This document shows, piece by piece, positions 4,878-62,597 of a DNA stretch of 62,876 bases (positions within the stretch are counted from its first letter, which is position 1; every line of letters begins with the position of its first letter). The DNA is taken from IMG/VR virus record IMGVR_UViG_3300037558_002528, positions 1-62,876 of that record; one strand, 5' to 3'. Under the pieces are notes generated by a model. It saw only the letters and a list, made by a program, of their open reading frames with translations, ran no database searches and was not told the origin of the DNA. The DNA comes from a virus. The translations under genes and the position numbers were made by a program.

Positions 4878-6098
4878 TCATCCCTTCACGCACAGGACCT
4901 GCTTGAGGGTATGCACCACCTCAACCAGATCAGATTGAGCGGCCATCACCGCATCGATATCCTTATAGGCAGCCGGGGTCTCGTCCAGCACCTCAGCATC
5001 CTTGCGGCATTCGACGCCGGCCGTGGCCGCGATGTGATCCTCGATCGTGAACTGCTTGCGCGCTTCGTTGCGCGACATCTTGCGCCCTGCACCGTGTGAG
5101 CAGGAGCAGAAGGCCTCGCGCTCGCCCTTCCCGCGCACGATGAACGACTTGGCACCCATACTGCCGGGAATGATCCCGAGTCGCCCTTCGTGGGCGTCGA
5201 CCGCACCCTTGCGCGTGACCATCACGTTTTCGCCGAAGTGGCGTTCCCACGAAACATAGTTGTGGTGGCAGTTCACTGCCTCGCAGTCGCACGTGAAGGG
5301 CTTCGGTATCGCCTGGTGCAGGGCCACCAGCGCCGCCTGCATCATCAGCTCGCGATTGATCCGGGCAAAGCCCTGGGCCCAGCCGACGGCCTCGAAATAG
5401 TCATCGAAGAGGTTGGAGCCTTGCGGGATGTAGGCCAGGTCCTGGTCGGGCAGGTTGATGAACCAGCGCTGCATATCGCGCTTGGCGGCCTCGATGAAGT
5501 AGCTTCCGATAGCATTGCCGATGCCACGGGAACCGGAATGCAGCATGATCCAGACGCGCTGCTGCTCATCCAGGCACAGCTCCACAAAGTGGTTACCGGT
5601 GCCTAGGGTGCCGGCGTGCGTGACTGCGCGCTCGGCCGGCCGCGACAGCTTCGGATGCTTGTGGGCCAGGACCGGCAGGAAGTCCATTTGCCGGCGCAGC
5701 GCTTCCGACGCGCCGTAGGGCGACTCGCCCCAGGCGCCGCGATCACCCGGGCCACCGTTGTTGGTCCGGCCATGGGGAATTGCTGCCTCGATCGCGCTGC
5801 GCAGCGGGCCCAAGTTGTCCGGGAGGTCCGAGGCCACGAGCGTGGTGCGCTGCGCGGCCATCCCGCAGCCGATGTCCACGCCGACAGCGGCCGGGATGAC
5901 GGCGCCCTTGGTGGCGATCACGCTGCCCACGGTGGCGCCCATGCCCCAGTGCACATCGGGCATCGCGGCCACGTGCTTATGGATGAAGGGCAGGCTGGCC
6001 AGGTTGCGCAGCTGCTGCTTGGCTGCGTCTTCTACCTGCACGCCACGCGTCCAGGCTTTGATGGGTTTTCCGGTGCTGTCGATGATTTCGAAGGTCAT
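4878..6098 (-). CDS. rtcB: RtcB-type RNA 3'-phosphate/5'-OH ligase
   Basis: Full-length 406-residue RtcB, close to the roughly 400 residues of the bacterial enzyme. RtcB joins 2',3'-cyclic-phosphate or 3'-phosphate ends to 5'-hydroxyl RNA ends using GTP and Mn2+. Metal-site residues are visible: D75-x-x-C78 in GVDIGCG, H170 in GTGNHFVE, H187 in MLHSGSRG, and the CHHN block at 277-280. The guanylylated histidine is H335 in CSCSHGAGRKMSR. It overlaps the upstream J-domain gene by 4 bp. No cyclase gene (rtcA) is present. In a phage its likely use is repair of tRNAs cut by host anticodon nucleases (inference). Confidence 0.95.
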   Translation of the reverse strand: MTFEIIDSTGKPIKAWTRGVQVEDAAKQQLRNLASLPFIHKHVAAMPDVHWGMGATVGSVIATKGAVIPAAVGVDIGCGMAAQRTTLVASDLPDNLGPLRSAIEAAIPHGRTNNGGPGDRGAWGESPYGASEALRRQMDFLPVLAHKHPKLSRPAERAVTHAGTLGTGNHFVELCLDEQQRVWIMLHSGSRGIGNAIGSYFIEAAKRDMQRWFINLPDQDLAYIPQGSNLFDDYFEAVGWAQGFARINRELMMQAALVALHQAIPKPFTCDCEAVNCHHNYVSWERHFGENVMVTRKGAVDAHEGRLGIIPGSMGAKSFIVRGKGEREAFCSCSHGAGRKMSRNEARKQFTIEDHIAATAGVECRKDAEVLDETPAAYKDIDAVMAAQSDLVEVVHTLKQVLCVKG

Positions 6099-6685
6099 GG
6101 CTTCAGTTCCTTTTCTGCTTCGGTGAGTGCGTTGTTCAATTCGGTCATACGTTCGTGGCTGCCACCGTTCTTGTCGGGATGCCTGGCGCTGGCCAGCTGC
6201 CGGTAGCGTTCCTTCACTTGGGGCATGGTCAGCGGCGGATGCTCCTCGCCGAAGTTCATCACCTCACGCCATGTGCGCTTCTTCTGTCCGGCTGGCGCCG
6301 GCAGCGCACGGAAGCCACTGAAGGTGGCGCGTACCAAGGCGAGAGTCCCGTGCCGAAGCTCGACGCGGCGCGCTTCCAGGATGTGGTGGATGGCCTGCAG
6401 GTTGGCTGCCGGCGTCAGGTACCGGTCCACCGGGATGCAAAACTGCTCACCGTCCCAAGTGAACCAGGCGGCGACGCCAGGATCCTGCGGTTTCTCGACG
6501 CCCAGCGAGCAGTTCGAGGAGAGCACCACGTTGGCCAGCGGCTTGCCGCTGTCGGTACCGAACTTGCGGAGGCTGTCCTGCACGTTCTTCAGGGCGCCGG
6601 CCAACGAAGTCTTGAAGCTGCCGGCTTCGCGGTGACGAGCCCGAGGGATGGTGTCAGGCCAATGAAGAGGGTAGGCGGTGGTCAT
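6095..6685 (-). CDS. J-domain (DnaJ-like) protein
   Basis: 196 residues. The C-terminal 45 residues form a short J domain with the diagnostic HPD at 169-171 (YRQLASARHPDKNGG), which stimulates the ATPase of DnaK. The N-terminal 150 residues do not match the classic zinc-finger or substrate domains of DnaJ. First gene of the segment below the plus-strand cargo gene at 6726; overlaps rtcB by 4 bp, suggesting co-expression. It may recruit host DnaK to phage replication or to RtcB; the latter is a guess. Confidence 0.85.
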   Translation of the reverse strand: MTTAYPLHWPDTIPRARHREAGSFKTSLAGALKNVQDSLRKFGTDSGKPLANVVLSSNCSLGVEKPQDPGVAAWFTWDGEQFCIPVDRYLTPAANLQAIHHILEARRVELRHGTLALVRATFSGFRALPAPAGQKKRTWREVMNFGEEHPPLTMPQVKERYRQLASARHPDKNGGSHERMTELNNALTEAEKELKP

Positions 6686-6725: not shown

Positions 6726-7139
6726 ATGGGGCAATATCAGGTAGTTCAACTCGAAAACGGGCGTTGGATTTGGACGTTCTTGACCGGCGATATGGTGGAT
6801 ACAAGGCGTTCTTTTGGTCACTCTGTTGTTGAATTCCCCAGTGCCGAAGAGGCAAATCAGGATCTGGTACGCCTTCAATCCGCGCAGCAAGTAGAAGGGC
6901 GTTACGTTGTGTCGGAGGGCTATCTGCAATCTCTCGTTAATCTGATTGCCGTAGCAGAGCCGAGCTGCGGAGGAGCGTCCATCGATGGCGTGCATTGGCA
7001 TGAGCCAGAAAACGAACGCGGAGCCAACTGGGATGTGTCTCATATCGGAGGCGCGGACGATGCACCAGCTTGTTACGACGCTATCCGCCCTAAAATCGAA
7101 GAGCTCAGGAGGCGATTCCTCATCGAGGATCCTCAGTAA
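6726..7139 (+). CDS. Plus-strand cargo gene, function unknown
   Basis: 137 residues, opposite to the operon around it, with GGGAGCG seven bases before the ATG and its own AT-rich upstream region (6687-6720, containing TTAGTTAATTAAATAA). Base composition looks lower in GC than the neighbours. This is the pattern of a moron expressed in the lysogen. It overlaps the methyltransferase gene tail to tail by 7 bp. No domain recognised. Confidence 0.7.
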   Translation: MGQYQVVQLENGRWIWTFLTGDMVDTRRSFGHSVVEFPSAEEANQDLVRLQSAQQVEGRYVVSEGYLQSLVNLIAVAEPSCGGASIDGVHWHEPENERGANWDVSHIGGADDAPACYDAIRPKIEELRRRFLIEDPQ

Positions 7140-9190
7140 CATTCTGCCGCTCCCTGTGTCACGCTCAGCGCTACGGCCACCGGCCGAACCCAGATCGGCG
7201 CCGCGCTGAGCTGGAACGTCTCGCCGGACCAGGCCAGCAGGAGAGTGCGCCCCATCTCGGAGGCGATGACCTCGGCGGCAGCTGGCGGCACGGCATTGCC
7301 GATGCGCTCGCGCCAGGCTTGATCCGACAGGCCGTCCAGCTCCAGCATCTCTTCCGGATCTACCAGCGACTGCAGTGCGGCCAGCTCCAAGGTCGTGAAG
7401 GGGCGGTGCCAGGTGCCGTCCGGCGCACGGATGACGCAGACTAGCTTGTCGGCCGCCGCCGGCATGCGCGGATCGGCGACCGACCAGCGGCCGTTGTCGT
7501 AGCTGGCCGCCGAGGCGACGGCGCCAGAGTGCGCATCCATGGGCAGCACGCCATAGTGGCCACCGGTCAAGTAGTGGTCGCCCTTCTGGGGAATGCCGGC
7601 CGGGCGCGGGTCGGCAACAGCGTACGCGCCGGTGTCATCGCCGCCGATCACGGTGCCGCTCGCGCCATCCCACTGCGCCACGGGATACTTGCTGAACAAC
7701 TTTCCCTCGCGTGCAGCACGCGGATCGGCGACCGCAAAGGCTCCTTGGCCCGTGGTGCTGCCGCTGATCACTGTGCCCGCTGGATCCTGCCAAGGCGTGA
7801 CGCCATACTTTCCGAACGACTCACCAGCGCGCCGAGGATCCGCCACGGCCTGGCCGCCAGAGCTTGGGCCGTGTCCGGATGTGACGGTACCGGCAGCACG
7901 ATCCCATTCCACCACCCGGTAGACGTTCTTGTGCGTACTCTCGATCGCGCCAGCGCGCGGGTCTGCCACTGAGAAGGTGCCCTGTCCAGGCGACTTGACA
8001 CCGATCACCGCGCCAGACGATTCGCGCCAGTCCAGCACGCCATACTGCTGATATTCGGCGGCACCCGCCGCAGCGCGGGGATCAGCCACTGCGAAGCGCC
8101 CGTTTGATGGCAGGGACTCTCCGGCCACGGCGCCCGAGGTATCGGTCCATGCATTGACTCCGTATCCGGCCGAGTAGAGTTCCTGGCGCGGATCTGCCAC
8201 CGCGAAGGAACCATTGTTCGGCAGGCTGCGGCCGGTCACGGTGCCGCGAGGCTCTTGCCAGTCATCGACGCCCAGGAAGCCGCCGTTGCGGTTCTCCGGC
8301 ACGATCAGGTAATCGCGCAGGTGGCCGTCCTCGATCGCTAGGCGGTTGAGGCTGCGCCAGTCCTTGCCAGCCTCCACGAACGCCAGGCGGACCCAAGTCT
8401 TCCACTGCAGCGACGGGATACGGTGCATCGGGCCGCCGGCCGGATCACCCGGGAGCGGCATCCGGCCCAAGATATCGCCCACCGCCAGCAGGCTGCGCTT
8501 CGGCGGTTCGTAGAGGAAGTTCGGCACCTTGGCCATGTGGCGGCCGACCAGCAGGAAGCGCTTGCGGCTCTGGGCCAGGCCGCCGATCTCGCCGCAGTCG
8601 TGAGTGGTCTCGGCGGTCGCATAGCCATACTGGCGCAGCAGCGCAACGATCTGGTCCAGCAGATGGCGACCGCGCGTGGCGATGCGCGGCACGTTCTCGA
8701 AGATGATCAGCTCCGGGGGATCGTCGGCCCAGGCCTCCAGCATAAGCCAGACGCCGCGCAGGGTCAGGCGGTTGAGTGCTTGGTATTTGTCGGTCTTGCT
8801 CTTGCCCTCGGCCAGCAGGCCGGAGAAGCCCTTGCACGGTGCAGAGAGAAACACGATATGCGGGCGCTCGCCGCTGGCAGCGCGGCGGATGTCGGCGGGG
8901 AGGGCCTCACGCCAACCAGGCGGCGGCATGTGACCGTGGAAGGCAAGGTACTGGTCCAGGTCGAACAGGTCCAGGGTCGTGGCCGGCACGCCCACCAGGC
9001 GGCCGAAATCGCGGTTCGCAGCGGCGTCCACGTCCACGCTGCCGATGCAGCGGAACTTGGCTACCATGTTGCCCACGCGGGCGCAGGCCCGGCTGAAGCC
9101 ACGTGCGCCGCCGCCGATGGCGCCGAACAGGTGGAAGTGGCGGATCTCGCGCACGTCGTCTTTGATGCCGGTGAAGGTGTCGCGCTTCAT
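7133..9190 (-). CDS. DNA cytosine-C5 methyltransferase with seven VADPR repeats
   Basis: 685 residues, well above the 350-450 usual for the family. Motif I is LFGAIGGGARGFSRA (21-35). The catalytic PC of motif IV is at 118-119 (SAPCKGFSG), motif VI ENV at 165-167, motif VIII QSRKRFLLVGR at 207-217 and the C-terminal motif RIGNAVPP at 629-636. Between motifs VIII and X, where the target-recognition domain lies, residues 308-575 hold seven diverged repeats of about 40 residues each ending in VADPR. It methylates cytosine at C5; the target sequence is unknown. Likely protects phage DNA from host restriction. Confidence 0.92.
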   Translation of the reverse strand: MKRDTFTGIKDDVREIRHFHLFGAIGGGARGFSRACARVGNMVAKFRCIGSVDVDAAANRDFGRLVGVPATTLDLFDLDQYLAFHGHMPPPGWREALPADIRRAASGERPHIVFLSAPCKGFSGLLAEGKSKTDKYQALNRLTLRGVWLMLEAWADDPPELIIFENVPRIATRGRHLLDQIVALLRQYGYATAETTHDCGEIGGLAQSRKRFLLVGRHMAKVPNFLYEPPKRSLLAVGDILGRMPLPGDPAGGPMHRIPSLQWKTWVRLAFVEAGKDWRSLNRLAIEDGHLRDYLIVPENRNGGFLGVDDWQEPRGTVTGRSLPNNGSFAVADPRQELYSAGYGVNAWTDTSGAVAGESLPSNGRFAVADPRAAAGAAEYQQYGVLDWRESSGAVIGVKSPGQGTFSVADPRAGAIESTHKNVYRVVEWDRAAGTVTSGHGPSSGGQAVADPRRAGESFGKYGVTPWQDPAGTVISGSTTGQGAFAVADPRAAREGKLFSKYPVAQWDGASGTVIGGDDTGAYAVADPRPAGIPQKGDHYLTGGHYGVLPMDAHSGAVASAASYDNGRWSVADPRMPAAADKLVCVIRAPDGTWHRPFTTLELAALQSLVDPEEMLELDGLSDQAWRERIGNAVPPAAAEVIASEMGRTLLLAWSGETFQLSAAPIWVRPVAVALSVTQGAAECY
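7466..8269 (-). repeat. Seven tandem protein-coding repeats in the methyltransferase recognition region
   Basis: Units share W-x3-SG-[TA]-V-x(8-11)-G-x-FAVADPR. VADPR occurs at residues 331, 368, 408, 449, 487, 525 and 571, spaced 37, 40, 41, 38, 38 and 46 residues. The DNA of the units has diverged, so this is an old duplication and not an assembly artefact. Confidence 0.9.
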
Positions 9191-9920: not shown

Positions 9921-11714
9921 TCATGCAGCCTCCCGCAGCGCCTCGATCACCCCATTGGCGATCCAGTACGAGGTGAAAGTAGGTGGGAGCTGGGCGGGCA
10001 ACTGCTTGAGCGTGCCGAACACCAACGCAGTTTCGATGTGGCCTTCCTCGGCCAGAGCATGGAGCCAGTTGATAGCATCCGAGCGGCCCGGCAGGTCCAG
10101 CACATCGAAGCGGTCCAGCATCAGGATGCGCAGGCCGGTCACCTGGGCGACAGCCTGGGCGATCATGGCATCGGTGCGCCATTGCTCGGACTCCGAGAGC
10201 AGGGCATAGGCGCGGCCGCCGGCGGTGATCGCCATATCGGCATCAATGTAGACGGATGCCCAGCCGCTGAAGGCCGCCGAGGCGGTGAGGGCGCTGTTGA
10301 TCGGCTTCAGTGCTTCGGCCAGCAGCTCGCCGGGGATGCCGTCGGGTGCGCAGGCATCGGCCACGGCCAGCCACGCCTTGACCTCTTCGTGCACCTTGGT
10401 GGCCTGGGCGGTCAGGGTGTCGGCGGCGTCCAAGGCACGCTGGGCGGCAGCGGCCGCCTCGATCGCTGCGGTCATTTCGGTCAGGCCAGCCCGCAGTTCG
10501 GCAAGATCGTCCTCCAGGGCCTTGATACCAGCCGAATGGTCGATGTCGAAATCCGTCTGCGCTTCCAGCTCGGCCAGGCGCTGGTCGGCACCGGTGGCAG
10601 CATCGAAATCCCGCCTCAGGTTCTTGACGCGGTTCTGCAGCACCTCCAGGCCACGTTCGTACTCAGGAAGTGAGTTCTTGGCATCGATGTCGACTTCGCC
10701 GACCGGCTTGATCGGTCCATGAGCGGCCTCGTAGGCATCCAGAGCAGCCAGGGCAGGGCGGTAGATATCATCGTCCTCGCCGCTGGCCTTGTAGGGGAAT
10801 TTCTCGACCATGCCATCCAGCGCATAGGCCAGGTCATGTACCAGGCCCAGCGGGCGGCCGCCAACGGCGCGGGTGCGCATGGCCACGACCTCCGGCTCGT
10901 ACTTGGCCAGCTCCTCTTCTGCACGCTTCAGGTTGCCGCTGATGTCGGGGGCCTTCTTGGAGAGTTCGCGCAGCTCGATGCGGCGCTGCTTGGCCTGCGC
11001 CTGGGCATTGTGCTTCGCGCGGGCCTCGCCGATCTGTCCATTGATCTTGTCGATTTCCTGGCGCACCTTGGCCACGTCCTCGGCGGTGTGTTCCACTGCC
11101 GGCACCGTCGGCTTCTTAGCTGCCCAGCCATCGCTGGCCACGCCGCCCCAGTGCGCGCCGGTGATCTGCTGCCAGGCACCTTTCTTCTTCTTCGCCCCTT
11201 CAGCCGCGAAGTCCTTGCCGGCCGGGAAGCCGGTGCGCAGGACTGGAATGACCGTATTCACCATCTGCGGATCGAGGTTGCGCGCGAGCAGGCGCTTCTT
11301 GATTTCCTCGGGCGACAGTTTGGTACCGCTGATAGCGAAGAGGAACGCGCGGCGTTCGTCATCCTTCATGGCGGCGAAGCGCTGGCCGTTCAGGGCCACG
11401 CCGATAGCCGCGCCAGTGGGCAGTCCATCCGAGACCTGGGACGCGCCCTTGGGCAGGTTGAATGCGTAGCTGCGGCCATCATCCAGGCCGACCAGCACGC
11501 CGCCGGCCTTGGAACCGGAATATACCAACGCCGGATATTCCTTCTTCAGCTTGGCACGCACGACTTCGCCGCTGATGGCCATGCGTACCGCTTCCTGCAC
11601 GCTGGACTTGCCCGAGCCATTACGGCCGGCGATCAGGGCGACGGGGGTGTGCAGCTTGATTTCGACCGAGCGTGCGCCCAGCACGTTATCGACTTGCAGA
11701 GTGGTGATTTTCAT
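9921..11714 (-). CDS. SMC/RecF/Rad50-like AAA ATPase
   Basis: 597 residues. Walker A is AGRNGSGKSS (29-38) in a RecF/SbcC-type N-terminus (MKITTLQVDNVLGARSVEIK). The middle is helical with coiled-coil potential (GLEVLQNRVKNLRRDFDAA), and a Walker-B-like LRILMLDRFDVLD lies near the C-terminus. It probably moves on or tethers DNA ends together with the nucleases encoded just upstream in the same operon. AAGGAAG precedes the ATG. Confidence 0.82.
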   Translation of the reverse strand: MKITTLQVDNVLGARSVEIKLHTPVALIAGRNGSGKSSVQEAVRMAISGEVVRAKLKKEYPALVYSGSKAGGVLVGLDDGRSYAFNLPKGASQVSDGLPTGAAIGVALNGQRFAAMKDDERRAFLFAISGTKLSPEEIKKRLLARNLDPQMVNTVIPVLRTGFPAGKDFAAEGAKKKKGAWQQITGAHWGGVASDGWAAKKPTVPAVEHTAEDVAKVRQEIDKINGQIGEARAKHNAQAQAKQRRIELRELSKKAPDISGNLKRAEEELAKYEPEVVAMRTRAVGGRPLGLVHDLAYALDGMVEKFPYKASGEDDDIYRPALAALDAYEAAHGPIKPVGEVDIDAKNSLPEYERGLEVLQNRVKNLRRDFDAATGADQRLAELEAQTDFDIDHSAGIKALEDDLAELRAGLTEMTAAIEAAAAAQRALDAADTLTAQATKVHEEVKAWLAVADACAPDGIPGELLAEALKPINSALTASAAFSGWASVYIDADMAITAGGRAYALLSESEQWRTDAMIAQAVAQVTGLRILMLDRFDVLDLPGRSDAINWLHALAEEGHIETALVFGTLKQLPAQLPPTFTSYWIANGVIEALREAA

Positions 11715-14314: not shown

Positions 14315-15115
14315 TCATTCGTGGTACATGCACGTGTTCCAGCGCGCGCAGTACTTGGGGCTGCACAGCTGGGACTGCGGGTTGGGATAAAAAAGGCCGG
14401 TCTGGAACATCACGGCGGCATACTCGATCAGGCCCTTCTGGGTTTCGGTGCCGACCATGACCCGCTTGGCATCGAAGATGCGTGACACGCCGACATTGGC
14501 CGAGGCCGTCGTTTGCAGCGCGATGATCTGGGCGCCGTCGGTAGGTTCGCCGTCGGTGTTCTCGGACATGAGCTGGTAGGCGCCGAGCTGGGCGGCACGG
14601 CCTTGGGTGTTCACCTCGCCGTTCGCAATTACCCGGGCACCGGTCTTGATGTCGGGGATGATCTTGCGGCCATCCACGCGCGCCACCCGGGCCCGGTCCA
14701 TGGTGCCGGTCAGGCGCACCAGGATCCCGTTGCCGCAATCAATCACCAGCGGCTCCAGTGCCATTTCGACGGACTGGTAGTCCATGTGCGGTGCGATCTG
14801 CGAGCAGTAGCGGGCCAGCAGCTTCAGGCCGATGGCTTCGCCCTCGCGCGGCTTCAGGTCATCCTGGCTGTAGTCGATTTCCTGCTCAGGGTTATGCAGC
14901 TTCTCTACGAACACACCGGCCGCGTCATCGATGCTTATGGGCGCGCCGTCCAGGTTGGCCTGGTCGTACGCGGCGGTGCCGGCATGGACGGCCGTGCCCA
15001 GCTGTGCGCGGAACCCACTCGGCTTGCGCATGCCCAGGATGTGTTCGCCTTCCCAGCGGTGGGCGCAATCAAAGAGGGAGCCCCAGGAGGAGGCGCGGAC
15101 GCGGATCTCGCTCAT
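14315..15115 (-). CDS. PD-(D/E)XK exonuclease, Cas4/RecB-like
   Basis: 266 residues. Visible motifs: LGTAVHAG with H44, TGTMDRA with D140, IPDIKTGA with D155-x-K157, then QLGAYQ. Cysteines at 17 and three near the C-terminus (CSPKYCARWNTC) fit the iron-sulfur arrangement of Cas4/AddB-type nucleases. It would resect double-strand ends for the annealing protein encoded 24 bp downstream. GGGAG lies before the ATG. Confidence 0.88.
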   Translation of the reverse strand: MSEIRVRASSWGSLFDCAHRWEGEHILGMRKPSGFRAQLGTAVHAGTAAYDQANLDGAPISIDDAAGVFVEKLHNPEQEIDYSQDDLKPREGEAIGLKLLARYCSQIAPHMDYQSVEMALEPLVIDCGNGILVRLTGTMDRARVARVDGRKIIPDIKTGARVIANGEVNTQGRAAQLGAYQLMSENTDGEPTDGAQIIALQTTASANVGVSRIFDAKRVMVGTETQKGLIEYAAVMFQTGLFYPNPQSQLCSPKYCARWNTCMYHE

Positions 15116-20848: not shown

Positions 20849-21429
20849 TGCCCGTCAAAGCCTTGGATGCAGCCCGTTACGGCAGGCTGGTTCCTATCGT
20901 CCATCAGCGTGGAGGGTGGCTATGTCGCTGCGATTGTGGCGCTGAATGCGTGGTCACGGGCTCTCATTTGCGCGAGGGACGAGTGCAGTCCTGTGGCTGC
21001 CTGAATCGCGAAAAACGCGCTCAGGCGAAGAAGCACGGTATGCGTCACAGCCGAACCTGGACCATCTGGAATCTGATGCGCCAACGCTGCACCAATCCGA
21101 AAAATGGTTCGTTCAAGAACTATGGCGCGCGCGGCATCACCGTCTGCGAGCGCTGGTCGGACTTTTCAGCATTTCTTGCTGATATGGGAGAAGCCCCCGC
21201 TGACCGGACTATCGAACGCATCCGCAACAACGAAGGGTATGCACCGGAAAACTGCCGGTGGGCGACTCGTGCTGAACAGGCCCTGAACACTCGCCGGAAC
21301 CGGCTTATCACGCTCGCCGGACGGACCCAACCGCTCCTGCTTTGGTGCCAGGAATTGCAAATTCCATATTGGACTGCACACGCTCGTCTTCGTCGTGGGG
21401 CATCACCTGAAAAGGCCCTTGCCAAATGA
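20845..21429 (+). CDS. HNH/AP2-type homing-endonuclease-like protein
   Basis: 194 residues. N-terminal zinc-binding pattern CRCDCGAEC...SCGCLNREK, followed by WNLMRQRCTNPKNGSFKNYG, ITVCERWSDFSAFLADMGE, IERIRNNEGYAPENCRWAT and a C-terminal helix-turn-helix-like tail. This is the family of freestanding phage homing-type nucleases. It is fully overlapped into the operon (ATGA at both ends), so it may have been domesticated. Confidence 0.75.
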   Translation: MMPVKALDAARYGRLVPIVHQRGGWLCRCDCGAECVVTGSHLREGRVQSCGCLNREKRAQAKKHGMRHSRTWTIWNLMRQRCTNPKNGSFKNYGARGITVCERWSDFSAFLADMGEAPADRTIERIRNNEGYAPENCRWATRAEQALNTRRNRLITLAGRTQPLLLWCQELQIPYWTAHARLRRGASPEKALAK

Positions 21430-23942
21430 AAGATTACGAAGACTTTTTGCGCGAGAAAATTCGACTTGCATCATTCGCTGGCTTTGCCATTGAGGATAGT
21501 GAGCTGAATCCAAATCTCCGTCCCCATACTCGCGATATTGTCAAATGGGCCTTACTGGGCGGCCAGCGCGCCATTTTCGCCAGCTTCGGCCTGCACAAGA
21601 CAGCAACCCAGCTCGAGATCATGCGCCAGGTCGGTATCCATCGCCCCGGCCTGCGCCTGATCTGCATGCCGCTGGGCGTGCGACAGGAGTTCGTGCGCGA
21701 GGCCGCCGAGCGCTTCGCCGGCGACTGCGCCATGGACCTGCGCTTCATCCGCTCGGACGCCGAGATCGGCGACGAACGCACCGTCTACCTGACCAATTAC
21801 GAGAGCATCCGCGAGGGCAAGCTTGATGTCTCCCGCTTCCGGGCGACCAGCCTGGACGAGGCGAGCGTGCTGCGCAGCTACGGCAGCAAGACCTATCAGG
21901 AATTCCTCCCGGCGTTCGCGCCCGTCGAATTCAAGTTCGTGGCCACGGCCACGCCCAGCCCCAACCGGTTCAAGGAATTGATCCACTACGCCGGCTACCT
22001 GGGTGTCATGGACACCGGCCAGGCGCTGACCCGCTTCTTCCAGCGTGATGCGGAGAAGGCCGGGAACCTGACCCTGTACCCGCATAAGACTGAAGAGTTT
22101 TGGATGTGGGTGGCCAGCTGGGCGGTGTTCATCCAGCGCCCGAGCGATCTCGGCCACAGCGACGAGGGCTACGTGCTGCCCGAGCTGGACGTTCGGTACC
22201 ACGAGGTGCCCAGCAACTACGGCGCGGCCGGTACCGAGAAGAACGGGCAGGGCCTGCTCATCCCCGACGTGGCCATGGGCCTGTCCGCTGCAGCCGAAGA
22301 GAAGCGCAACAGCATGCCGGCGCGCGTGGCCCTGGTGGCCGACCTGGTCGCCCAGGATCCGGAAGATCACTTCATCGTCTGGCACGACCTGGAAGACGAG
22401 CGCCATGCCATCCAGCAGGCCGTCCCGGAAGCGGTCAGCGTCTGGGGCACCCAGGACTTGGAGGTGCGCGAAGAGCGTATTCGTGACTTCAGCGATGGGA
22501 AATGCCGCGTGCTATCCACTAAGCCGATCATCGCGGGCTCCGGCTGCAACCTGCAGCGGCATTGCCACCGCGAGATCTTCGCGGGGATCGGCTTCAAGTT
22601 CAACGATTTCATTCAGTCAATTCACCGGGTCCACCGCTTCGGCCAGCGCCAGCGCGTGCGCATCGACATCGTGCACACGGAATCCGAGCGCGAGGTCCTG
22701 CGCACGCTGCGCGCCAAGTGGGACCAGCACATCGAAATGGGCAACAAGATGACAGAAATTATCCGGAAATTCGGGCTGAGCCAGCTGGCCATGCAGGAGA
22801 CGCTGTCCCGCTCCATCGGCGTCGAGCGGATCGAGGTGCGCGGCGACCGCTTCGCGGTGGCGAACAATGACTGCGTGGCCGAGGCTAAGCTCCAGCCCGA
22901 CAACTCGGTCGGCCTGATCGTCACCAGCATCCCTTTCGCCAACCACTACGAATACACCCCGAGTTACAACGACTTCGGCCACACCCAGGACAACGCCCAC
23001 TTCTGGGCCCAGATGGATTTCCTCACGCCCGAGCTGCACCGGATCCTGCAGCCCGGTCGCATCTACTGCTGCCACGTGAAGGACCGCATCAACTTCGGGA
23101 ACGTCACCGGTGCGGGTGTCCCCACCGTCAGCCCGTTCCACGCGGAAGCCCTGTTCCATGGCCTGAAGCATGGCTTCGACTACATGGGCATGATCACCGT
23201 GGTCACCGACGTGGTGCGCGAGAACAACCAGACCTACCGCCTGGGCTACACCGAGATGTGCAAGGACGGCACGAAGATGGGCGTAGGCTCCCCCGAGTAC
23301 GTCCTGCTCTTCCACAAGCCGCAGTCCGACCGCTCGCGTGGCTACGCCGACGTCCCGGTGAAGAAATCGAAGGACGAATACAGCCTGGCCCGGTGGCAGG
23401 TCGATGCGCATGCCTTCTGGCGCTCCAGTGGCAACCGCCTGCTGTCGGCCGACGAGATGGCCGCCTACGGCCCGGAGAAGCTCGCCAAGATGTTCACCGA
23501 GCACAGCCTCGAGAACGTCTATGACTTTGATTTCCACGTGCGCGTGGGCGAGCAGCTGCTGGAGCGCCAGGCGCTGCCCAGCACCTTCATGAGCCTCGCG
23601 CCCGGCAGCCATCACCCTGACGTGTGGCACGACGTGCTGCGGATGAAGACTCTCAACGGCGAGCAGGCCAACCGCGCGGTCGAGAAACACATCTGCCCCC
23701 TGCAGTTCGACATCGTGGACCGGCTCATTGAGCGCTACAGCAATCCCGGCGACCTTGTCTATGACCCGTTCCATGGCCTGGGCACGGTCGGTGTGCGCGC
23801 CATCAAGGCAAGTCGGCGCGCTGGCGGCTCCGAGTTGAACCCGGCCTATTTCCTTGATCAGGTCCACTACCTGCGCGCCATGGAGCGCGAGGTCAGCATG
23901 CCGACCCTGTTCGACTTCGATGAAATCGAGCGTGCTGCATGA
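21426..23942 (+). CDS. Helicase-DNA methyltransferase fusion
   Basis: 838 residues. The N-terminal half is a SNF2/DEAD-like helicase: motif I FGLHKT (54-59, His replacing the usual Gly), motif II DEAS (144-147), motif III ATATPS, motif VI VHRFGQRQRV near 404. The C-terminal half is an amino-methyltransferase with the catalytic TSIPFANHYEY near 500 (a DPPY variant) and the AdoMet loop DPFHGLGTVG near 780. Such fusions resemble anti-restriction proteins of the DarB type. Likely modifies phage DNA, on adenine N6 or cytosine N4. Confidence 0.85.
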   Translation: MKDYEDFLREKIRLASFAGFAIEDSELNPNLRPHTRDIVKWALLGGQRAIFASFGLHKTATQLEIMRQVGIHRPGLRLICMPLGVRQEFVREAAERFAGDCAMDLRFIRSDAEIGDERTVYLTNYESIREGKLDVSRFRATSLDEASVLRSYGSKTYQEFLPAFAPVEFKFVATATPSPNRFKELIHYAGYLGVMDTGQALTRFFQRDAEKAGNLTLYPHKTEEFWMWVASWAVFIQRPSDLGHSDEGYVLPELDVRYHEVPSNYGAAGTEKNGQGLLIPDVAMGLSAAAEEKRNSMPARVALVADLVAQDPEDHFIVWHDLEDERHAIQQAVPEAVSVWGTQDLEVREERIRDFSDGKCRVLSTKPIIAGSGCNLQRHCHREIFAGIGFKFNDFIQSIHRVHRFGQRQRVRIDIVHTESEREVLRTLRAKWDQHIEMGNKMTEIIRKFGLSQLAMQETLSRSIGVERIEVRGDRFAVANNDCVAEAKLQPDNSVGLIVTSIPFANHYEYTPSYNDFGHTQDNAHFWAQMDFLTPELHRILQPGRIYCCHVKDRINFGNVTGAGVPTVSPFHAEALFHGLKHGFDYMGMITVVTDVVRENNQTYRLGYTEMCKDGTKMGVGSPEYVLLFHKPQSDRSRGYADVPVKKSKDEYSLARWQVDAHAFWRSSGNRLLSADEMAAYGPEKLAKMFTEHSLENVYDFDFHVRVGEQLLERQALPSTFMSLAPGSHHPDVWHDVLRMKTLNGEQANRAVEKHICPLQFDIVDRLIERYSNPGDLVYDPFHGLGTVGVRAIKASRRAGGSELNPAYFLDQVHYLRAMEREVSMPTLFDFDEIERAA

Positions 23943-55963: not shown

Positions 55964-57025
55964 TTACTTATGGCTAAGTGCCGGTGCGGCCTGTAAAGAA
56001 TGCGCTCGGTGCTCTCCGTACAATGCCGCGCTTAAGATAGAACTTCGGCGCAACACGAAATACAGGCCGAGTGAAAAGGCGATGGCAAATGTGGTCATCG
56101 AGATAGCTTTTGTCCATCCGCCTCCAAAGTAGAGCGGGAACATTCCGAGACCAGTGAAACTGAAGTGGGCAACATACACCGGCAACGTCAGCCTACCCAG
56201 TTTTGCAAGCCATTTTGAGGCACGGGTGCTCTGAAGGCCGTAAAGAACTGCCCAGGTGCAGAGCATCGCAAGCAATGGCAGGCCGATGATATAGGTTTTA
56301 TCTACCCAGATCTTGCGAGAGCCTACCAACTCTATGATGTGTGCTGGCAATAATGGGACATCGTAGAACTGCCAATAGGGGAGCAACACCATGTATGCGA
56401 AACCTGCGACAGCGGCGGTCAGCCAGTTGAATCGGCCGAACGAACTGAGCCACGCTTGATACTTCGCAACCGTGTAACCAGCAATGAAAAAGGGGAAGTA
56501 CCAACTGACGTAGACCAGCGTACCCGGTAACGGCCACGCCTGGTACTTTCTGTCGAGCACGATGTAAAAAGCGATAAATGCGAAAGTCTCCAGCGCAGAG
56601 GAAACGCGTGGGCTTCGAAAAAAAAATGACGACGCATTGTGAATTAGCCAAGCCATCGCCTGGATGAGAAAAAGCACCAAGAGAAACCACACGTAGTCTG
56701 GGCCGTGAATCCACGTATTCAGATAGTCGAGCAAAGTGGAATTCTTAAATTTTCCGTACAGCAGATACCCGAGTAACACCCAGGTAGCGCAAGGCAAAAG
56801 CAGTGAGAATGCCTTACGTCGGATGAAGTCCGGCGTCTCGAATCGGCCATATGCAGTGAAGCCAGCAAGAAGCATGAAAAATGCCACGTGATAGGTATAG
56901 ATGACCTTTCCGATAATCCCGGCGGGGATTATGTGTCCGGCCACAACCAGCAAGATGGCAAAGCCTCGCAAACTATCGAGAAGTCCGTTTCTTTCGTTAT
57001 CAGCCACTATTTCCCCGACCCTCAT
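55964..57025 (-). CDS. Acyltransferase-3 family membrane protein (lysogenic conversion)
   Basis: 353 residues with about ten membrane helices. LLDSLRGFAILLVVAGHIIP contains the conserved R and H of the OafA/acyltransferase-3 family, and YTYHVAFFMLLAGF the second His. Its stop abuts the fibre-assembly stop, and it reads against the late operon with AT-rich DNA and its own upstream region. Such phage genes O-acetylate surface polysaccharide, which changes serotype and blocks further adsorption. Confidence 0.88.
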   Translation of the reverse strand: MRVGEIVADNERNGLLDSLRGFAILLVVAGHIIPAGIIGKVIYTYHVAFFMLLAGFTAYGRFETPDFIRRKAFSLLLPCATWVLLGYLLYGKFKNSTLLDYLNTWIHGPDYVWFLLVLFLIQAMAWLIHNASSFFFRSPRVSSALETFAFIAFYIVLDRKYQAWPLPGTLVYVSWYFPFFIAGYTVAKYQAWLSSFGRFNWLTAAVAGFAYMVLLPYWQFYDVPLLPAHIIELVGSRKIWVDKTYIIGLPLLAMLCTWAVLYGLQSTRASKWLAKLGRLTLPVYVAHFSFTGLGMFPLYFGGGWTKAISMTTFAIAFSLGLYFVLRRSSILSAALYGEHRAHSLQAAPALSHK

Positions 57026-61376: not shown

Positions 61377-62597
61377 CTATGCAACCAGGTGCAGCGGCGG
61401 CCTGGCGGCTTCAACCAGCCGATCGATGTAATCTGACCAGTCCTGCATCATCTTGGTCCGCTCTGCGAGAAACTTGGCACGGTCGTATGCTTTATCCACC
61501 TTATTGCCCTTGGCGTGCGAGAGCTGCAGGTCCACTACCTCATGCCGATAGCCAAGCTCCTGCTTGAGCACGCCCATGGCAAGAGACCGGAAGCCATGCC
61601 CAGTCATCCTGCCGCCATAGCCGATGTTCTCCAGCACTTTCAGGATTGCACCGTCCGACATGTGGGTATCCGGACGGCGCTGGTTTGGGAAGACAAATTG
61701 GTGTCGTCCTGAAATTGGCTGCATCTCTCGGAAGAGTGCAACGCATTGCCAGGAGAGGGGTACCACGTGGCCGCGCCCCTTTTTCATCCGCTCAGGTGGA
61801 ATATCCCATACCGCCTTATCCAGATCCGGCTCCGTCCAGGGCACAGCGATCAGCTCGGTTGTCCGGACGAATGTCCTCATCATCAGCCACAGAGCTACCC
61901 GCGTGGCCGGGAACATGTGGTGCTTGCTGTTGACCAGGTCCTTGATGAACTGGGGAAATTCCTCGACGGTGATCGACGCGAAGTGGCCCTTCTTGGGCTT
62001 TTTCATCACGTCCTTGAGCGCGGCAGCCGGGTTGCCCTGGGTATCGCCGCAGACAATTGCAAAATTGAAAATACGGGCAACCATGCCACGGCAGCGGCTG
62101 GCGATCTCCAGTGCGCCGCGCTTCTCGATCTCGCGGAAGACCAGCAGCAGGCGCTGGGGGGTGATCTTGGCAATCGGATCCTGGCCGATCACAGGGAAGA
62201 CATCGGTCACAAGGCGATGCAGGTTCTCTTTCGCCGTGCCATCGCCCCATTCATCGCTGGCGGCCATGTGCGCATGCCACTCCCTGGCCACCACCTCAAA
62301 CGTTCGGGCCTGGGCCACTACTTGGGCGATCTTGCTGATCTGTTTCTCGACTGCAGGGTCATTGCCAGCCTTCAACATCCGGCGGGCGTCTTCCCATTTT
62401 TCCCTGGCATCGGCCAGCGAGACATCCGGATAGGTGCCCAGAGAAAGAGACTTTTGCTTGCCCCCGAACCGGTAAGCCCCAGTCCAGTACTTGCCGCCGC
62501 CAGGGTGGACTGACAGGGATAGTCCGCGCGCGTCGGACAACTTGTAGAGCTTTTCTTTCGGCTTTGCAGCACGGCATCCGGCGTCGGTAAGGGGCAT
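61377..62597 (-). CDS. int: Tyrosine integrase, P4-type
   Basis: 406 residues. N-terminal DUF4102 arm-binding domain (MPLTDAGCRAAKPKEKLYKL, KSLSLGTYPDVSLADAREKW), core-binding domain, then the catalytic domain: R in FVRTTELIAVPW, H-G-F-R in MTGHGFRSLAM, second His in QLSHAKGN, Tyr in DKAYDRAKFL. Integrates the phage at tRNA-Ser and excises it with the AlpA-like protein. No strong ribosome binding site; upstream repeats look like arm sites. Confidence 0.95.
   Translation of the reverse strand: MPLTDAGCRAAKPKEKLYKLSDARGLSLSVHPGGGKYWTGAYRFGGKQKSLSLGTYPDVSLADAREKWEDARRMLKAGNDPAVEKQISKIAQVVAQARTFEVVAREWHAHMAASDEWGDGTAKENLHRLVTDVFPVIGQDPIAKITPQRLLLVFREIEKRGALEIASRCRGMVARIFNFAIVCGDTQGNPAAALKDVMKKPKKGHFASITVEEFPQFIKDLVNSKHHMFPATRVALWLMMRTFVRTTELIAVPWTEPDLDKAVWDIPPERMKKGRGHVVPLSWQCVALFREMQPISGRHQFVFPNQRRPDTHMSDGAILKVLENIGYGGRMTGHGFRSLAMGVLKQELGYRHEVVDLQLSHAKGNKVDKAYDRAKFLAERTKMMQDWSDYIDRLVEAARPPLHLVA

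What the first reader, a model, noticed from the sequence alone, without database searches (positions are those of the whole stretch)
7133..9190. Cytosine methyltransferase with seven recognition-domain repeats
Seven diverged 37-46-residue units ending in VADPR fill the region where C5 methyltransferases read their target. This expands the protein to 685 residues. Such a repeat array could give several target specificities, like multispecific phage methyltransferases, or bind extended DNA.
Basis: partly seen in the sequence, partly recalled or inferred. Interest (0 to 1): 0.72.

Follow-up and report, generated by a model that had tools for sequence, protein, structure and literature searches.

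The report
Phage DNA methyltransferase with seven recognition modules
A temperate phage carries one DNA-methylating enzyme whose target-reading part has been copied seven times in a row (2 to 11 times in its relatives, with units gained, lost and swapped whole), so that one protein can probably mark several DNA sequences and shield the phage from several bacterial restriction enzymes at once.

Summary
It is a C5-cytosine methyltransferase of 685 aa with all catalytic motifs. Seven units (aa 304-575, period 37-46 aa, ending VADPR) sit between motifs VIII and IX.

The unit profile aligns to the target-recognition core of ordinary C5 methyltransferases (M.HhaI, M.SPbeta; E 3e-4, 0/150 column shuffles as good). 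In 107 relatives unit number runs from 2 to 11. Near-identical genes differ by whole in-frame units or by swapped internal blocks. Units fall into recurring classes that differ in the two patches flanking an invariant V; the first and last classes are nearly fixed.

A distant phage group (RR1-A, ARM81) also carries tandem units of this kind. [quoted passage not shown]

Best reading: an orphan, multispecific anti-restriction methyltransferase with a modular recognition array, a new variant of a known kind (Bacillus phage multispecific enzymes). Which unit reads which site is unknown; a site-avoidance test was inconclusive, and AlphaFold2 could not model the array.

The parts
7133..9190 (-). C5-cytosine DNA methyltransferase gene, 685 aa
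   Evidence: PF00145 1.1e-12; phrog_32684 4.7e-107, phrog_116 2.4e-51; fold of a relative: M.HaeIII Z 24.8, M.HhaI Z 23.7
8282..9190 (-). catalytic domain, aa 1-303 (motifs I-VIII); AlphaFold2 pLDDT mostly 80-97 for aa 11-260
9098..9136 (-). motif I, FHLFGAIGGGARG, aa 19-31 (cofactor site)
   Evidence: sequence; G26, G28, G31 invariant or nearly so
8831..8839 (-). motif IV, PCK, aa 118-120, with the catalytic Cys119 invariant in the family (Q is usual in third place)
8690..8698 (-). motif VI, ENV, aa 165-167
   Evidence: invariant
8558..8572 (-). motif VIII, QSRKR, aa 207-211
8186..8281 (-). unit 1, class A (first-position class), GFLGVDDWQEPRGTVTGRSLPNNGSFAVADPR
8075..8167 (-). unit 2, class A copy, YGVNAWTDTSGAVAGESLPSNGRFAVADPR; absent as a 111-nt in-frame block in L009, L005 and L004
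7955..8050 (-). unit 3, class D, QQYGVLDWRESSGAVIGVKSPGQGTFSVADPR
7832..7927 (-). unit 4, class F, NVYRVVEWDRAAGTVTSGHGPSSGGQAVADPR; class E stands in its place in L005 and L009
7718..7813 (-). unit 5, class B, GKYGVTPWQDPAGTVISGSTTGQGAFAVADPR
7604..7693 (-). unit 6, class B variant, KYPVAQWDGASGTVIGGDDTGAYAVADPR; absent as a 114-nt in-frame block in L004
7466..7561 (-). unit 7, class C (last-position class), GHYGVLPMDAHSGAVASAASYDNGRWSVADPR
7133..7465 (-). C-terminal part aa 576-685: motif IX (RPFTTLELAALQ, aa 596-607) and motif X (GNAVP, aa 631-635)

Best explanation
It is an orphan, multispecific C5-cytosine DNA methyltransferase of a temperate phage. One catalytic domain (motifs I-VIII plus IX-X) carries, in the usual slot for the target-recognition domain (TRD), a tandem array of seven TRD cores. 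Each core presents two variable patches around a fixed T/A-V pair. Inferred mechanism: the enzyme engages DNA with one unit at a time next to the catalytic cleft, and each unit class accepts its own short cytosine-containing site, so that one protein methylates several motifs. The marked phage DNA then resists several type II restriction enzymes when it enters a new host. Phage recombination gains, loses and swaps units as in-frame blocks, retuning the set of protected sites. Shown: the fold class, the intact motifs, the array, its homology to TRD cores, and whole-unit gain, loss and swapping. Inferred: that each unit is an active reader, that one unit gives one site, and the anti-restriction role.
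For: Catalytic motifs conserved across 36 aligned sequences; a relative's model matches M.HaeIII (Z 24.8) and M.HhaI (Z 23.7). The unit profile aligns to the TRD core just before motif IX in 25 ordinary C5 enzymes, E 3e-4. Real score 21.3 against a shuffled mean of 9.9, sd 1.9, max 15.6, 0/150; all eight large classes align to the same place. In ordinary C5 enzymes the better single matches sit at this place (WDEPAPTLTT...). Copy number 2-11. In-frame whole-unit indels of 111, 114 and 120 nt at or near VADPR junctions between relatives; window and L009 keep 88-98% DNA identity upstream of and into the array, fall to 53-64% over a 360-nt internal block, then return to 91-93%. Of 55 pairs with core identity 95-99%, 36 differ in array, for example the window AADFBBC against L009 ADEBBC. 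Between-class information concentrates at unit positions 1-6 and 16-26; the V and VADPR are nearly fixed. A distant tandem-array group (ARM81ld and ARM81mr 5 units, RR1-A 8 detected) shares the core (hhalign 13.3 against null max 9.5; [quoted passage not shown] kinship stated in PMC5537653). Relatives lie on phages and on 167 plasmid records, 66 of them conjugative. No restriction gene stood out among the conserved flanking ORFs.
Against: No methylation data for this enzyme or any VADPR-type relative was found. AlphaFold2 gives no structure for aa 270-578 (pLDDT mostly under 40). The unit profile does not score against M.SPbeta or M.HhaI singly. The unit/site avoidance test was inconclusive: D with YCCGGR was t 4.3 in the discovery DNA but 0.5 in held-out DNA; B with AGCT was 3.6, then 2.9 at rank 16 of 172. 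The near-fixed first and last classes and the strict order suggest that some units may be structural. The published assays call the distant enzymes relaxed, with partial protection, and one homologue (Phi2LM21_p23) showed no activity in E. coli (PMC5537653).
Confidence: 0.77

Rival explanations
1. One real reader plus structural repeats. Only one unit (the last, class C, next to motif IX, or the first, class A) reads DNA, and the rest are a scaffold or tether that adds affinity or processivity.
For: Class A is first in 87 and class C last in 104 of 108 arrays, and a two-unit A+C enzyme exists (L060).
Against: Interior units keep class-specific residues in the two candidate reading patches over great distances (for example sttgqGAfAVADPR in class B across 89 loci), which a mere spacer would not need. 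All large classes align to the TRD core.
Confidence: 0.12
2. Relaxed or near non-specific cytosine methylation: the array grips DNA and the enzyme methylates many CC/GC contexts, without one unit per site.
For: The authors who assayed the distant group describe relaxed specificity and at least one C in a CC motif (PMC3925955; PMC5537653).
Against: Those were restriction-protection panels, which cannot separate several discrete sites from loose specificity. Discrete conserved unit classes with whole-unit turnover fit discrete sites better.
Confidence: 0.08
3. The units jointly read one long composite DNA site (extended binding).
For: Tandem spacing of 37-46 aa and a strongly conserved order (D before E/F before B/H/G, with few exceptions).
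Against: Unit number and content differ even between genes whose catalytic parts are 97-99% identical; a composite site would change or fail with each such event.
Confidence: 0.03

Closest known systems
Multispecific C5 methyltransferases of Bacillus phages (SPbeta, phi3T, rho11s, SPR, H2)
   Same: Phage-borne orphan C5 enzyme; several contiguous TRDs of about 40 aa between motifs VIII and IX, each with a T-L/V pair; protection from several restriction systems (PMC12707154; PMC5923457; details of TRD size and motif from memory of the Trautner, Wilke and Lange papers).
   Different: Those are about 440-500 aa with 2-4 TRDs (memory). Here there are 7 (2-11 in the family), with a shared VADPR end, recurring classes, fixed end classes and a different catalytic lineage. 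The unit profile has no direct hit in the SPbeta enzyme.
Large relaxed-specificity m5C methyltransferases of proteobacterial phages (ARM81mr_p29, ARM81ld_p31, RR1-A, Phi2LM21_p23, Paracoccus JCM7686_0772 and _2655)
   Same: The three fetched (ARM81mr, ARM81ld, RR1-A) are C5 enzymes with tandem units built on EPxxTVT; Paracoccus enzymes placed in this group by PMC5537653 were shown to protect many sites.
   Different: Different repeat consensus (no VADPR); BLAST to the window protein only E 0.08. The passages read describe relaxed specificity and do not mention a TRD array. I did not see the Paracoccus sequences.
Annotated C-5 cytosine-specific DNA methylases of Pseudomonas phages LKA5, H66, PP9W, Dobby and of Marinobacter phage PS3
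   Same: Same family, 55-60% identity over 97-98% of the protein.
   Different: Annotated by the catalytic domain only; no account of the array was found.
M.HhaI / M.HaeIII (monospecific)
   Same: Catalytic fold; one TRD core at the place of the array.
   Different: One TRD, one site.

Membership tests
C5-cytosine DNA methyltransferase (PF00145) | Family HMM match and catalytic motifs I, IV, VI, VIII, IX, X in order | tested here: met
   48.5 bits, cut-off 22; Cys119, ENV, QxRxR, GNAVP conserved; PCK instead of PCQ; NCBIfam dcm matched below its cut-off (38.9 of 100.65 bits)
C5-cytosine DNA methyltransferase (PF00145) | Class I methyltransferase fold of M.HhaI/M.HaeIII | tested here: met
   on the two-unit relative L060: Z 24.8 to 1dct, rmsd 3.1 over 282 residues
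C5-cytosine DNA methyltransferase (PF00145) | Makes 5-methylcytosine in DNA | not testable with these tools
   needs expression and bisulfite or LC-MS
Multispecific phage C5 methyltransferase (Bacillus phage type, as a functional class) | More than one TRD in tandem between motifs VIII and IX | tested here: met
   seven units homologous to the TRD core by profile comparison
Multispecific phage C5 methyltransferase (Bacillus phage type, as a functional class) | Methylates two or more distinct sites, each lost with its own TRD | not testable with these tools
   indirect only: published assays on a distant group
Multispecific phage C5 methyltransferase (Bacillus phage type, as a functional class) | Orphan, without a partner endonuclease | tested here: inconclusive
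   no endonuclease was evident among conserved ORF clusters within about 4 kb in relatives, but shadow ORFs made the clusters noisy; a PDDEXK_1 ORF at 14315-15115 lies in the recombination cluster
Bacillus SPbeta-group methyltransferase (by descent) | Direct sequence kinship beyond the general C5 fold | tested here: not met
   no unit HMM hit; whole-protein tblastn E about 1 to phi3T
ARM81/RR1-A large m5C methyltransferase family | Same repeat consensus and close sequence identity | tested here: not met
   BLAST E 0.08, repeat without VADPR; both match phrog_116, which is a broad family that also matches ordinary enzymes

The most novel reading that the evidence does not exclude
A swappable recognition code: each 37-46 aa unit class reads one short cytosine site, up to 11 units share one catalytic domain, and phages and conjugative plasmids retune the set of protected sites by gaining, losing or exchanging whole units. 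The code could then be read by comparing methylomes of natural variants that differ by one unit.
Probability: 0.6. Interest if true: 0.78.

Novelty: new variant of a known kind. Interest (0 to 1): 0.62.

Why it matters
If each unit is a reader, this is the largest TRD array I know of in a C5 methyltransferase (7 here, up to 11), in a family spread over phages and conjugative plasmids of Pseudomonas, Burkholderia and others. It would explain how one phage gene can beat many restriction systems, and why distant enzymes were described as relaxed. The natural differences of one or two units (L015/L087, L027/L050, window/L005) make the unit-to-site code directly testable with a few expression plasmids and EM-seq, and would supply swappable modules for programmable cytosine methylation.

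Tried and rejected
Structure of the array: both AlphaFold2 jobs gave pLDDT mostly under 40 there, so no fold is claimed. PDB sequence search with the single protein gave nothing useful; the family profile found mainly DNMT1 and M.HaeIII, through catalytic motifs. Site avoidance by unit class (172 palindromic motifs, 86 contigs, then tree-corrected) suggested D with YCCGGR and B with AGCT. On 1.1 Mb of held-out DNA from 48 of the same phages, D failed and B stayed at t 2.9 among many deviating motifs, so no unit was assigned a site. Recent slippage as source of the array: rejected, DNA copies are too diverged. Beta-propeller reading: disfavoured because unit number varies from 2 to 11. Direct kinship to SPbeta TRDs by the unit HMM: no hit. 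phrog_116 as proof of kinship with ARM81/RR1-A: rejected, too broad. The two units counted in L108/L109 are probably an undercount (first detected unit at aa 377); L062 and L068 arrays are truncated by contig ends or incomplete.

Full report
WHAT IS THERE. The coordinates are right, but the gene runs on the minus strand: 9190 down to 7133, 685 aa. Pfam calls a C-5 cytosine DNA methylase (PF00145, 1.1e-12, over the cut-off) and PHROGs a phage methyltransferase. In 36 aligned sequences the glycines of motif I, PC(K) with Cys119, ENV, Q-R-R and GNAVP are invariant or nearly so. AlphaFold2 gives a confident catalytic domain. The same domain in a two-unit relative matches M.HaeIII at Z 24.8 and M.HhaI at 23.7. 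So the enzyme looks catalytically intact. The third residue of motif IV is K rather than Q throughout the family.

THE UNITS. Seven units lie between motif VIII (aa 207-211) and motif IX (aa 596-607). Each is about 32 conserved residues plus a spacer; from one VADPR to the next they are 37, 40, 41, 38, 38 and 46 aa. They are far beyond chance: all 21 pairs beat every shuffle, and each unit scores 40-58 bits with the family profile. At DNA level the copies are diverged, so the array is old.

RELATIVES. 77 viral contigs, 33 bacterial genome contigs, 36 phage records, mostly Pseudomonas, and 167 plasmid records, 66 of them conjugative, carry relatives. Unit number runs from 2 (L060, 477 aa, complete) to 11 (L061) over 108 arrays including the window. 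Clustering the units gives recurring classes. Class A is first in 87 arrays and class C last in 104. Interior classes (D, E, F, B, G, H and rarer ones) are optional but keep a strict order. The window is A-A-D-F-B-B-C.

TURNOVER. Close relatives differ by whole units. Of 55 pairs with 95-99% identical catalytic parts, 36 have different arrays. DNA alignments show in-frame blocks of 111, 114 and 120 nt missing at or near the VADPR codons. Between the window and L009, DNA identity is 88-98% upstream of and into the array, falls to 53-64% over 360 nt of internal units and returns to 91-93%.

WHAT A UNIT IS. I searched ordinary single-site C5 methyltransferases with the unit profile. The better matches were single copies of a short element just before motif IX, such as WDEPAPTLTTQFYGFGNGRF followed by HPEQDR. 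Profile-profile alignment against 25 such enzymes places the unit on that element: the SPbeta enzyme's VYSPEGLSPTLTT and M.HhaI's IYSTRGIAITLSAYGGG. E is 3e-4; no column-shuffled profile of 150 reaches the score, and each of the eight large classes aligns there by itself. In M.HhaI this stretch holds the recognition loops around T250 (established knowledge). Within the units, class-specific residues concentrate at positions 1-6 and 16-26, on both sides of the fixed V, whereas positions 7-12 vary without regard to class. This is the pattern expected of reading surfaces on a common scaffold. The classes were themselves defined from these columns, so the contrast is descriptive.

FUNCTIONAL PRECEDENT. 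Paracoccus prophage enzymes JCM7686_0772 and _2655, cloned in E. [quoted passage not shown] PMC5537653 groups them with proteins of about 700 aa in phage RR1-A and, more distantly, ARM81. I fetched RR1-A, ARM81ld and ARM81mr. All three carry tandem units on an EPxxTVT core, 5 in each ARM81 enzyme and 8 detected in RR1-A. Their core aligns with the VADPR unit (13.3 against a null maximum of 9.5). They are not close kin (BLAST E 0.08), and the phrog_116 match that they share with the window is uninformative because that family also contains ordinary enzymes. So tandem recognition arrays appear in at least two distant groups, one of which has multi-site protection data. I did not see the Paracoccus sequences themselves.

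MECHANISM. Most likely, one catalytic domain is served by alternative readers, as in the Bacillus phage enzymes, giving methylation of several motifs and protection from several restriction systems. No endonuclease partner stood out near the gene. It lies near the RecT, exonuclease and ATPase genes of a temperate phage with an integrase at 61377-62597 and a baseplate gene. Steps shown here: fold, motifs, array, homology to TRD cores, unit turnover. Inferred: activity, one unit per site, anti-restriction role.

ATTEMPT TO ASSIGN SITES. If a unit protects a site, phages lacking it might avoid that site. A tree-corrected scan suggested D with CCGG contexts and B with AGCT. On held-out DNA of the same phages the first vanished and the second was weak. 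I assign no sites.

NOVELTY. Multispecific phage C5 enzymes with tandem TRDs are known. New here, as far as the held literature shows: the number of units, the catalogue of recurring classes with near-fixed ends and order, the whole-unit turnover, and the finding that enzymes previously called relaxed carry such arrays. Hence 'new variant of a known kind'. Most subscription papers, including the primary ARM81 paper and the Trautner papers, could not be read.

Noticed in passing
window 4878-6098 (-): Full-length RtcB-type RNA ligase (PF01139, 1.6e-129) in a phage early region, next to a small protein with a weak J-domain match (6095-6685).
   Followed up: no
window 9921-11714 (-): SMC/RecN-like ATPase of 597 aa (AAA_23, weak PADLOC hits to DndD and PtuA); ORFs overlapping this region recur next to the methyltransferase in about 23 relatives.
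   Followed up: partly
L003 4000-6140: In a 97% identical relative the catalytic domain carries a 91-nt insert that looks like a tandem duplication and breaks the frame: a dead gene, a variant, or an assembly error.
   Followed up: partly
plasmids collection: 167 plasmid records carry relatives of this phage enzyme, 66 of them conjugative, mostly Pseudomonas, Roseomonas and Burkholderia; a few Bacillus, Priestia and Paenibacillus records appear too.
   Followed up: no
L315, L316, L317 (Aeromonas phages ARM81mr and ARM81ld, Rhizobium phage RR1-A): Enzymes of the group described in the literature as relaxed-specificity carry 5, 5 and 8 detected tandem EPxxTVT units, a second, distant array family.
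   Followed up: yes
window 21426-23942 (+): 838-aa ORF matching a phage helicase profile (phrog_16) and, at aa 480-830, a profile named DNA methyltransferase (phrog_67).
   Followed up: no
window 55964-57025 (-): Acyltransferase_3 gene on the minus strand among plus-strand ORFs downstream of tail genes, possibly a surface-modifying lysogenic conversion gene.
   Followed up: no
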